A stretch of DNA of 64,000 nt from a virus: positions 1 through 64,000 of the IMG/VR virus record IMGVR_UViG_3300013372_003978. One strand, given 5' to 3'. The notes beneath the pieces are model-generated. The model worked only from the letters and a program-made list of their open reading frames with translations. It ran no database searches and was not told the origin of the DNA. A program made the translations under genes and the position numbers. Shown piece after piece: positions 5,061 through 7,647 of this stretch. How positions within the stretch are numbered: position 1 is the first letter of the stretch; the number at the start of each line of letters is the position of its first letter.

Positions 5061-5090
5061 ATTATTATTATTATTATTATTATTATTATA
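5061..5090. repeat. ATT trinucleotide microsatellite
   Basis: Nine uninterrupted ATT units plus a partial unit occupy most of the 36-bp gap between the DUF285 gene and the 64-residue gene. On the coding (minus) strand the tract reads (TAA)n starting at the DUF285 stop codon, so it provides a row of in-frame stop codons. Changes in copy number would alter only the spacing to the next start codon. Confidence 0.9.
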
Positions 5091-7647
5091 TACCTCCATC
5101 TACTATTGTCCATCCATAACCTGTTCTAAAAAAACCTCCTGAAATGTAGGCACTTGAAAAAGCACTACCTTGTAAATCTACTTGAGTTGTGCTTACTACC
5201 GTTACTGTCCAAAGACCATTTGCTTGTGTTGCTCCTATCACTCCTGAGATAAATACTTTATTACCAGTTCCCCTATTATGAGCTGTGCTTGTTGTAATTC
5301 TTATTAATCCTGAACCATTATTAACCGCACTACTTATTACTAATGAAATACTTGCTCTTAATAATAAGTTTTTCCCTTCTGTTGATGCTGATGTATGTTT
5401 AGCACTCCCAAAGGAAATTGAACGACTTGTTAATAGTAAGTTATTTATCCATCCATTATATATTGCGTCCAAATTTGTTGCTGAAAATGTAGCTGGTGTT
5501 TTATTTGTCATAAAACTATTAAAATTGGTACAAGCACTTACATTCCAATTTCCAATATTTTGATTAAATGCATGTGCACTAAAAAACATTTGAAACATAG
5601 TTGTTACCTTACTCACATTCCACCCTGACAATGGTTGGTTAAAATCAAATGCTCCAACAAAGACATCGGACATAATAGTACAAGCTGATAAATTCCAATT
5701 ACCTATTGGTTGATTAAATACATCAGCACTACTAAATATACTAGCTATAGTAGTAACTTTTGAAGTATTCCATCCTGATAAAGGTTGGTTAAAGTCTCTA
5801 GCAGCAGCAAACATATTTGATAGGTTATTCACATTACTCACATTCCAATTATTAATATTTTGATTAAATACACGTGCACTACTAAACATACCTACCATAG
5901 TAGTACAAGCACTCGTATTCCATCCAGATAATGGTTGATTAAATGCTTGTGCATTATTAAACATTTGAAACATATTATTCACCTTACTCACATTCCAACT
6001 ATTAATATTTTGATTAAATGCTAACGCACCACCAAACATACTATTCATAGTAGTACAAGCACTCGTATTCCAATCTAATGTACCTGTCACTCCTGACGCT
6101 AAACCATTATTAAATGCTGGTGCACTAAAAAACATCGCAGACATATCTCCCACCTTACTCACATTCCAACTATTAATATTTTGATTAAATGCTAACGCAT
6201 TATTAAACATACTATTCATAGTAGTACAAGCACTCGTATTCCAATTTAATGTACCTGTCACTCCTGACGCTAAACCATTATTAAATACTAATGAATTACT
6301 AAACATACCTGCCATAGTAGTAGCACTACTCACATTCCAACTATTAATATTTTGATTAAATGCAACAGCATTATTAAACAGATTAGTCATAGTAGTAACT
6401 TTTGAAGTATTCCATCCAGATAATGGTTGATTAAATGTATCAGCATTATTAAACATACCTGTCATATTACTCACATTACTCACATTCCAACTATTAATAT
6501 TTTGATTAAATGCATCAGCATTATTAAACATATTAGTCATATTAATACAAGCACTAGTATTCCATCCAGATAATGGTTGATTAAATACTAATGTATTTTG
6601 AAACATAGAAGTCATATCAGTACAAACACTCGTATTCCAACTATTAATATTTTGATTAAATGCTAACGCATTATTAAACATACTATTCATAGTAGTACAA
6701 GCACTCGTATTCCACCCAGATAATGGTTGATTAAATACTAACGCATTTTGAAACATAGAAGTCATAAGTGTAACTTTTCTAGTATCCCAATCCCCAATAT
6801 ATTGATTAAAAGAATCCGCACCATTAAACATAAGACTCATATTAGTACAAGCACTTGTATTCCAAGATAATGTACCTGTAACTCCTGGTGTTAATCCATT
6901 ATTAAAAGCTGATGCATCATTAAACATTTGGTTCATAGTTGTAGCACTACTAGTATCCCACCCAGATAATGGTTGATTAAAAAGAGTAGTTGAACGGAAA
7001 ACTATAGACATATTAGTCACCTTACTCACATTCCAATTATTAAGAGGTTGATTAAATAAAGTAAAATTATCACATAAAAAAATTAAACTTCTTATATTAG
7101 CCACATCCCAATTGCTAATTAAATTGATAGTTGGTTTGGTCATAAAAGCAAACATACTACTTAAAGCCGTCAAATATCTTGTTGGTAATGTGTCTTTAAC
7201 ATTTGATAAATTTAAGTTAGTACAATTAACAAATTGCTGACCACCATTAAGCACATCATCAATTAATTCCAAACAACCGAACCTTTCAATCGATAATAAT
7301 TTAACTGCTTCAGTACCCAATCCAAAATATGACCATCCTCTACATACTCCAGTTATTTTTACAGTATATACTTTTAATGCTGTTGGATATGTATGTGTAC
7401 TAATTGTTTGGTTATAAAGATAAATATAATCTTTTTTACCATCCCCCCAATCAATCCAAAAACTGTAGGTACCATCTACAACCAATGGTAAATCTAGAGT
7501 TCTGGTTGAAGTTGTTCTAATAGTAAAAATGAATGTATTAGCTTCACTAATCATTTGCTCGCTTCCAACCAAACCGTTGGCAAACCCAACAAAAGAATTG
7601 TCAAGTCTACCATTAGCTAAACCATTATCTAAACCATTGCTATTCAT
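5086..7647 (-). CDS. BspA-type / DUF285 leucine-rich-like repeat surface protein (853 aa)
   Basis: About residues 40-180 resemble the usual N-terminus of DUF285 proteins, with FTIRTTSTRTLDLPL and FWIDWGDGKKDYI. Some twenty 25-residue repeats follow (FNQPLSGWNTSACTTMNSMF style, PF03382), as in BspA-like and Mycoplasma lipoprotein repeats. Three repeats carry a seven-residue insertion (FNNGL-x-x-GVTGTL). The C-terminus (about residues 690-853) ends in a small beta domain containing LIRITTSTAHNRGTG. The protein has no lipobox or signal peptide, unlike bacterial BspA, so it is more likely a virion component with an adhesin-like repeat surface. It has been placed in a fibre operon, which supports a receptor-binding role. 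Confidence 0.8.
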   Translation of the reverse strand: MNSNGLDNGLANGRLDNSFVGFANGLVGSEQMISEANTFIFTIRTTSTRTLDLPLVVDGTYSFWIDWGDGKKDYIYLYNQTISTHTYPTALKVYTVKITGVCRGWSYFGLGTEAVKLLSIERFGCLELIDDVLNGGQQFVNCTNLNLSNVKDTLPTRYLTALSSMFAFMTKPTINLISNWDVANIRSLIFLCDNFTLFNQPLNNWNVSKVTNMSIVFRSTTLFNQPLSGWDTSSATTMNQMFNDASAFNNGLTPGVTGTLSWNTSACTNMSLMFNGADSFNQYIGDWDTRKVTLMTSMFQNALVFNQPLSGWNTSACTTMNSMFNNALAFNQNINSWNTSVCTDMTSMFQNTLVFNQPLSGWNTSACINMTNMFNNADAFNQNINSWNVSNVSNMTGMFNNADTFNQPLSGWNTSKVTTMTNLFNNAVAFNQNINSWNVSSATTMAGMFSNSLVFNNGLASGVTGTLNWNTSACTTMNSMFNNALAFNQNINSWNVSKVGDMSAMFFSAPAFNNGLASGVTGTLDWNTSACTTMNSMFGGALAFNQNINSWNVSKVNNMFQMFNNAQAFNQPLSGWNTSACTTMVGMFSSARVFNQNINNWNVSNVNNLSNMFAAARDFNQPLSGWNTSKVTTIASIFSSADVFNQPIGNWNLSACTIMSDVFVGAFDFNQPLSGWNVSKVTTMFQMFFSAHAFNQNIGNWNVSACTNFNSFMTNKTPATFSATNLDAIYNGWINNLLLTSRSISFGSAKHTSASTEGKNLLLRASISLVISSAVNNGSGLIRITTSTAHNRGTGNKVFISGVIGATQANGLWTVTVVSTTQVDLQGSAFSSAYISGGFFRTGYGWTIVDGGI
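5500..7056 (-). repeat. DUF285 75-bp coding repeats (about 20 units)
   Basis: Tandem 75-bp units encode alternating FNQPLSGWNTS and FNQNINSWNVS repeats. Several units differ by only a few bases, for example near 6030, 6210 and 6680, so unequal recombination could add or remove units. Confidence 0.85.

What the first reader, a model, noticed from the sequence alone, without database searches (positions are those of the whole stretch)
5086..7647. BspA/DUF285 repeat adhesin carried by a phage
DUF285 repeats are best known from bacterial and protozoan surface proteins. Here about 20 units form the main part of a phage protein without signal peptide or lipobox, inside a fibre operon. Three units share a seven-residue insertion, showing block duplication.
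Basis: partly seen in the sequence, partly recalled or inferred. Interest (0 to 1): 0.5.

Follow-up and report, generated by a model that had tools for sequence, protein, structure and literature searches.

The report
Swappable phage fibre-tip adhesin cassette
A phage of unknown host carries a leucine-rich-repeat protein that looks like one of several interchangeable tips which different phages seem to plug onto their tail fibres through a small shared connector protein; this would matter because it suggests how phages could change the cell surface they recognise.

Summary
In detail: ORF 5086-7647(-), 853 aa, is mainly a DUF285 array (20 canonical units plus a degenerate one, three with a 7-residue insertion) without a signal-peptide-like start. 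DUF285 in phages is not new (114 of 50,697 records) and "BspA" is a loose name.

New is the setting: fibre shaft ending in a conserved peptide, a 150-aa jelly-roll "adaptor" without database match, the DUF285 protein behind an Asn-Gly-rich leader, then a 64-aa gene. In 25 distinct cassettes, window included, shaft peptide, adaptor and leader recur while the payload differs: DUF285 8, LamG 5, AbfB-like 4, jelly-roll-like 2, knob 6. Two contigs are 95-97% identical in DNA on both sides of unrelated payloads, breaking at the leader's end. In a near relative, flanks are 82-96% identical while array units match like random pairs.

Best explanation: an LRR-type receptor-binding tip docked to a fibre by adaptor and leader. 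Virion presence, docking and receptor binding are inferred.

The parts
8138..8185 (-). C-terminal 16 codons of the fibre shaft protein, the conserved putative docking peptide (..DFMMVSLFRTLYNY)
   Evidence: 8 of 1577 ORFs tested end in this motif and all 8 lie upstream of an adaptor, one with a 70-aa ORF between; terminal 16 aa 0.43 identical among the 215 of 300 shaft pairs with no blastp match in the rest of the protein, against 0.08 for a control stretch
8135..15550 (-). fibre shaft protein, 2471 aa, with 17-residue SNFFG..AGYxAT repeats
   Evidence: no Pfam or PHROG hit
7654..8106 (-). 150-aa putative adaptor, predicted jelly roll
   Evidence: no Pfam, PHROG or NCBIfam hit; 24-row alignment A2; model mean pLDDT 79.6
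5086..7647 (-). DUF285 payload protein, 853 aa
7540..7647 (-). N-terminal Asn-Gly-rich leader, aa 1-36
   Evidence: leaders of this kind on all 25 distinct cassettes (read by eye); payload exchange breaks at its end in L084/L087; residues 1-32 pLDDT<50
7135..7539 (-). WGDG (PKD-like) N-terminal domain, about aa 37-171
   Evidence: alignment A3, invariant W67 G68 D69; the name PKD-like rests on sub-threshold PKD hits of the relatives L057 and L118
5494..7131 (-). DUF285 array, 21 units, aa 173-718, predicted LRR-like solenoid
   Evidence: VIA Z 19.7 to an LRR domain, Z 19.0 to Leptospira LRR LIC10831 with rmsd 4.7 over 330 residues
6811..6906 (-). first +7 unit, aa 248-279
6190..6285 (-). second +7 unit, aa 455-486, start of the duplicated 57-aa block
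6019..6114 (-). third +7 unit, aa 512-543, start of the second copy of the block
5347..5493 (-). C-terminal cap, first part (NLDAIYNGW..FGSAKHT..), aa 719-767
   Evidence: alignment A3
5125..5346 (-). FCCH-like beta domain inserted in the cap, aa 768-841
   Evidence: Foldseek to the Uba1/Uba6 FCCH region, probability 1.00, rmsd about 3 over 80-90 columns but E only 0.014 at best; also present in L057 and L204
5089..5124 (-). C-terminal cap, last part (TGYGWTIVDGGI), aa 842-853
   Evidence: alignment A3
4855..5049 (-). 64-aa follower gene, possible assembly helper
   Evidence: present after 8 of 8 DUF285 cassettes (window counted), 0 of 17 cassettes with other payloads; also in L049 and L204

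Best explanation
The DUF285 protein is the receptor-binding payload at the tip of a phage tail fibre. The upstream shaft protein ends in a conserved peptide; the 150-aa jelly-roll protein acts as an adaptor that holds that peptide on one side and the Asn-Gly-rich leader of the payload on the other; the payload then presents an LRR-like solenoid, closed by a cap that carries an extra FCCH-like domain, to the host surface. Because shaft peptide, adaptor and leader form a standard interface, different phages can exchange payloads (LRR, LamG and other lectin-like folds, knobs), and the LRR array itself turns over by duplication and recombination of units. Shown: the sequences, the cassette and its recurrence, payload exchange between near-identical flanks, array turnover against conserved flanks. 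Inferred: virion location, the two contacts, oligomeric state, receptor binding.
For: Cassette order shaft peptide / adaptor / leader payload in 25 of 25 distinct cassettes. Motif scan of the viral collection independent of the adaptor: 16 stretches, 7 with an in-frame ORF end, 7 of 7 followed by adaptor and leader payload (these contigs were already known from other queries). Five payload types behind the same interface. L084/L087: 96.6% DNA identity through adaptor and leader, none found in the payload, 95.1% after it; L082/L085 break at the same place; L098 against L094, L095, L096 and L099 against L092 regain identity after the payload. In L084 the cassette follows Baseplate_J, Tail_P2_I and tail-collar genes. 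A DUF285 array is fused to a phage protein elsewhere: the N-terminus of the L046 protein is 46% identical over 122 aa to the stand-alone window protein 27267-27641. OBP_145 lies between a 'putative virion structural protein' and a 'putative phage baseplate assembly protein'. Array turnover: units counted from the cap are on average 0.61 identical between window and L204, like all cross pairs (0.614), order not significantly collinear (p=0.09 and 0.10), while cap+FCCH is 82%, the 64-aa gene 91%, the next gene 96% and 1804 nt of the downstream fibre gene 96% identical in DNA. LRR-like model. Two DUF285 proteins are in AaV particles.
Against: No virion proteomics or binding data for this phage or its cassette relatives; no INPHARED record has the adaptor (two members as query). 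Exchange of a DUF285 payload itself is not seen: in the adaptor tree the 8 DUF285 rows form one clade; exchange is shown only among the other payload types. The adaptor model's PDB fold matches are middling (best VIA Z 8.5; Foldseek E 0.002), so it could be a chaperone or another virion part. The leader is disordered in the model and no contact was predicted. Of the 25 payloads, Pfam gave a hit for the window's DUF285, two LamG and two AbfB-like ones and none for L085 and L096; the other types rest on blastp, alignment or motif.
Confidence: 0.66

Rival explanations
1. The 150-aa protein and/or the 64-aa protein are assembly chaperones that are not in the virion; the DUF285 protein attaches to the fibre directly through its leader.
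For: Some phage fibres need dedicated chaperones (title and abstract start of PMC7289586 seen in the listing); the 64-aa gene is present after 8 of 8 DUF285 cassettes and none of 17 others.
Against: The adaptor stays while payload fold and most of the shaft change, which fits a connector better than a fold-specific chaperone; its sequence is strongly conserved (36 invariant columns in 24 rows). The 64-aa link is confounded with one clade.
Confidence: 0.2
2. The DUF285 protein is not a virion part but acts in or on the infected cell, for example at the host surface against superinfection.
For: Cellular DUF285 proteins are mostly exported (56 of 73 with a hydrophobic start).
Against: No export signal in any of 32 phage DUF285 proteins tested or in the window; fibre operon; the same slot is filled by lectin-like folds and knobs; fusion to a phage domain in L046.
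Confidence: 0.06
3. The cassette is real but its proteins decorate the head or another surface and bind glycans or particles in the environment, not the receptor for infection.
For: LamG and AbfB-like payload relatives match PHROGs of category 'head and packaging', named virion structural protein (phrog_8510, phrog_10356); the best VIA match of the adaptor is a trimeric phage cement protein (Z 8.5).
Against: Tail-fibre locus in L084; the upstream partner is a long repeat or collagen-like shaft.
Confidence: 0.15

Closest known systems
PARCEL / DUF285 (PF03382) / TIGR02167 repeat proteins of bacteria and eukaryotes (PMC2996958: abstract, outline and passages read)
   Same: 25-residue unit, HMM match far above cut-off, variable unit number
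   Different: No membrane-targeting start; no excess of inverted repeats in the DNA (another method than the paper's); set behind a phage leader in a fibre cassette
Phage DUF285 proteins such as OBP_145 (1713 aa, the length of phrog_17273), pir03 ORF 287, Aeromonas phage D3
   Same: DUF285 array in a tailed phage, OBP_145 next to structural genes
   Different: No adaptor found in any INPHARED record
Aureococcus virus AaV particle proteins with DUF285 and LamG domains (PMC7507832, passages and abstract start read)
   Same: Two DUF285 proteins among 43 virus-encoded proteins of purified particles, beside LamG-type proteins
   Different: Giant algal virus, no tail fibre
T-even gp37/gp38 fibre-tip adhesins and lactococcal BppU-type baseplate proteins (recalled)
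   Same: Separate adhesin docked on the end of a fibre; exchangeable receptor-binding part
   Different: No sequence relation tested; here a third connector protein and an N-terminal leader
ExsF/BxpB exosporium anchor proteins of Bacillus
   Same: Jelly-roll protein that anchors fibres by N-terminal peptides (recalled; a PDB title names an ExsF-peptide anchoring complex)
   Different: Weak fold match only (E 0.002-0.01, TM about 0.3-0.4); an analogy

Membership tests
DUF285 / TIGR02167 repeat family | HMM score above curated cut-off | tested here: met
   540.5 against 25 bits; 124.5 against 30 bits
DUF285 / TIGR02167 repeat family | tandem units of about 25 residues | tested here: met
PARCEL as defined in PMC2996958 | dyad symmetry in the repeat DNA | tested here: inconclusive
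   inverted k-mer pairs not above synonymous-codon shuffles (k=6 p=0.06; k=7 0.31; k=8 0.55; k=10 1.0); the paper used MEME palindromes, not repeated here
BspA family (LRR_5 type, recalled) | LRR_5 match | tested here: not met
   only DUF285 at E<=0.01 in Pfam
BspA family (LRR_5 type, recalled) | exported surface protein | tested here: not met
   no hydrophobic start, score 1.70 below 2.0 (crude test)
Leucine-rich-repeat fold | LRR-like solenoid | tested here: met
   predicted model pLDDT 78.5; VIA Z up to 19.7, above the 13 that the tool warns of for repeats; Foldseek alone gave no match at E<=0.001
Phage tail-fibre receptor-binding protein | gene in tail-fibre locus | tested here: met
   adaptor and shaft directly upstream in the window; relative L084, which has another payload, after Baseplate_J and Tail_P2_I
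Phage tail-fibre receptor-binding protein | present in virion | not testable with these tools
   needs proteomics
Phage tail-fibre receptor-binding protein | binds host receptor | not testable with these tools
   needs adsorption or binding assay
FCCH domain of E1 enzymes | fold similarity of aa 768-841 | tested here: inconclusive
   Foldseek probability 1.00, rmsd about 3, but E 0.014 or higher and no Pfam hit

The most novel reading that the evidence does not exclude
An undescribed plug-and-socket system: a C-terminal shaft peptide, a dedicated 150-aa jelly-roll adaptor and an Asn-Gly-rich leader let different phages exchange whole adhesin tips of unrelated folds, one of them a fast-recombining LRR array that works as a hypervariable, TLR-like recognition surface on a phage.
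Probability: 0.5. Interest if true: 0.75.

Novelty: new variant of a known kind. Interest (0 to 1): 0.55.

Why it matters
If right, it names a conserved connector by which receptor-binding tips could be recognised in metagenomic phages of uncultured hosts, where shaft and tip sequences are too variable to search. It gives DUF285 repeats, widespread and without known function, a testable role, and offers a natural case of an LRR array diversifying by unit turnover, perhaps under host-recognition pressure. It also gives a defined boundary (the end of the leader) for studying how phages exchange tips.

Tried and rejected
Rejected: signal peptide or lipobox. Rejected: that the +7 insertion is private to this gene. 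Transfer from a bacterial host by a repeat phylogeny was not attempted as a tree: the window's units are on average 0.45 identical to each other and 0.40 to units of the other cassettes and they turn over, so a unit tree would not be readable. The closest cellular loci by E-value, L118 and L119 (Flavobacterium), and also L194, look phage- or tailocin-like themselves (no export signal, end at the cap, after a fibre-like gene); a sheath-family search hit 2 of the 3 genomes, not shown to be on the same contigs, so their nature is open. Host: not found; adaptor in none of the GTDB genome contigs scanned (88 pattern stretches, 0 relatives); the capsid protein is nearest to an uncultured phage, a Microcystis phage and Flavobacterium phages at 41-44% over 37-39% of its length, a weak hint only. 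PARCEL palindromy: no excess. C-terminal 144 aa as query: 22 pattern stretches, no relative. PDB by sequence: no hit at E<=1. A first unit-count pattern was wrong (0-3 units) and was replaced by the Trp-anchored count. The first pattern for adaptors missed 19 of 30 loci; these were then read at their match positions. Dropped before the 25-cassette count: 8 repeat copies of the same cassette (L074, L077, L079, L080, L086, L090, L091, L097) and L093, whose adaptor has no full ORF; L093 too has the shaft motif and a leader payload. Promoter-like sites were fewer than in shuffles (19 against 27.0) and terminator-like sites 3 against 1.0 expected; none is used as evidence. Papers: 9 searches; no paper on DUF285 as a phage fibre tip was found among the open PMC texts searched (only the pir03 paper holds both 'DUF285' and 'tail fiber'). 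Seen: passages of PMC7765460, PMC7507832, PMC10720644 and PMC12923769; abstract, outline and passages of PMC2996958; all others only as search listings.

Full report
What is there. ORF 5086-7647 on the minus strand encodes 853 residues. From N to C it has an Asn-Gly-rich leader (aa 1-36), a WGDG domain (about 37-171), 21 DUF285 units (173-718; 20 canonical, the first degenerate), and a C-terminal cap that is interrupted by an FCCH-like domain (768-841). Pfam DUF285 scores 540.5 bits and TIGR02167 124.5 bits. Three canonical units carry seven extra residues. Two of them begin 57-aa blocks that are 90% identical in DNA, a duplication; the third is older, and such units occur in other phages. Units alternate in two types (p=2e-4), seen also as a 150-nt period.

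Known or not. DUF285 in phages is known: 114 of 50,697 INPHARED records match, several annotated as BspA or 26-residue repeat proteins, and four PHROGs of unknown function match. The name BspA is loose: no other Pfam family matches. In the giant algal virus AaV two DUF285 proteins were found in purified particles (PMC7507832, passages).

The cassette. The gene upstream (7654-8106, 150 aa) has no match in Pfam, PHROGs or NCBIfam, none in INPHARED with two different members as query, and none in the GTDB genome contigs. Relatives lie in 30 viral loci by alignment search. Upstream of it lies a shaft protein whose last residues are conserved. Of 1577 ORFs in the window and the loci then held, 8 end in the motif and all 8 precede an adaptor, one with a 70-aa ORF between. 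That set had been collected through DUF285 or the adaptor, so I scanned the viral collection for one form of the motif alone: 16 stretches, 7 in-frame ORF ends, 7 of 7 followed by adaptor and leader payload, although on contigs already known. Leaving out repeat copies and one broken adaptor, 25 distinct cassettes remain, window included. Among the 300 pairs of their shafts 215 have no blastp match outside the last 30 residues, yet their last 16 residues are on average 43% identical, against 8% in a control stretch. Against full independence: by single linkage 23 of the 25 shaft bodies still fall into one loose cluster.

Exchange of payloads. All 25 payloads start with a leader of the same kind but belong to five types: DUF285 8, LamG 5, AbfB-like 4, a jelly-roll-like type 2, a knob type 6 (Pfam confirmation for the window's DUF285, two LamG and two AbfB-like members; the rest by blastp, alignment or motif). 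L084 and L087 are 96.6% identical in DNA through shaft end, adaptor and leader, show no match in the payload, and are 95.1% identical again after it. L082 and L085 break at the same place. Several pairs among L092-L099 lose identity at the adaptor stop or in the leader and regain it after the payload. On the adaptor tree the five labels need 8 changes (least possible 4), but the 8 DUF285 rows form one supported clade: exchange is shown for the system, not yet for DUF285.

Location in phage genomes. In L084 the cassette follows Baseplate_J, Tail_P2_I and a tail-collar protein. L033 has it between a terminase and a head protein. The window's record has a T4-type capsid gene. L046 fuses a DUF285 array to a domain that is a separate protein in the window. 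Thus the arrays sit with virion genes in several phage types.

Fast turnover. A near relative, L204, came from the search with the 64-aa gene. A stretch of 1804 nt of its downstream fibre gene is 96% identical to the window, the next gene 96%, the 64-aa gene 91%, cap plus FCCH domain 82% in DNA. But its 14 array units, counted from the cap, are only 47-74% identical to the window's (mean 0.61), like all cross pairs (0.614), and their order is not significantly collinear (p=0.09 and 0.10). L204 holds only the 3' part of the array. Across the 8 DUF285 cassettes the unit number ranges from 4 to 21.

Fold. The payload model (pLDDT 78.5, leader below 50) aligns with LRR domains at Z up to 19.7 by VIA, though Foldseek alone gave nothing at E<=0.001. 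The adaptor model (pLDDT 79.6) is a jelly roll with middling PDB matches and matches some phage proteins in BFVD (best E 1.2e-6).

Mechanism. I read the DUF285 protein as a receptor-binding tip held on a fibre by adaptor and leader. The sequence facts above are shown; virion location, the two contacts, oligomeric state and receptor binding are inference. The lack of an export signal in all 32 phage DUF285 proteins tested, against 56 of 73 cellular ones with one, argues against a role on the infected cell's surface.

The 64-aa gene is present after 8 of 8 DUF285 cassettes and 0 of 17 others, and occurs in L049 and L204. As those 8 form one clade, this may be common descent and not a functional link.

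Verdict. The repeat protein itself belongs to a family already known in phages; the interchangeable cassette around it appears undescribed in what I could search (and the nine paper searches named under Tried and rejected).

Noticed in passing
window 8873-10255, 28019-30328, 39195-39733: Arrays of 17-residue repeats (SNFFG..AGYxAT; 51-nt period) in three different fibre-like proteins; one has a sub-threshold YadA_head match.
   Followed up: partly
window 185-892: A LamG-type protein without leader (Pfam Laminin_G_3) downstream on the same strand; five LamG payloads of other cassettes are 28-35% identical.
   Followed up: partly
window 15677-16447: ORF with a GIY-YIG-like start between two fibre genes, possibly a homing endonuclease (motif recalled, no call).
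   Followed up: no
window 43911-63344 and L070 49-2877: Long run of glycosyltransferase-like and sugar-nucleotide genes in a phage (names recalled from the sequences, no family search).
   Followed up: no
L118 162-7403, L119 170-7580: Flavobacterium chromosomes with repeated pairs of a 153-155-aa fibre-like gene and a payload with a shared short leader (MG.L..T.FGR), some payloads DUF285, others not: a second cassette of the same logic.
   Followed up: partly
L009, L045, L053: Third arrangement: shaft ending in TMLPQLSFTLKRM.., overlapping by 4 nt a DUF285 protein with leader MNN.AFQIYG.
   Followed up: partly
L010-L029 and L050: Many contigs with three DUF285 genes in tandem behind Thr-Pro-rich linkers.
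   Followed up: no
L033 9248-11803: Head-morphogenesis-like protein whose C-terminal part matches ADP-ribosyltransferase PHROGs.
   Followed up: no
window 38301-41051: Fibre protein with a C-terminal Peptidase_S74 chaperone domain.
   Followed up: no
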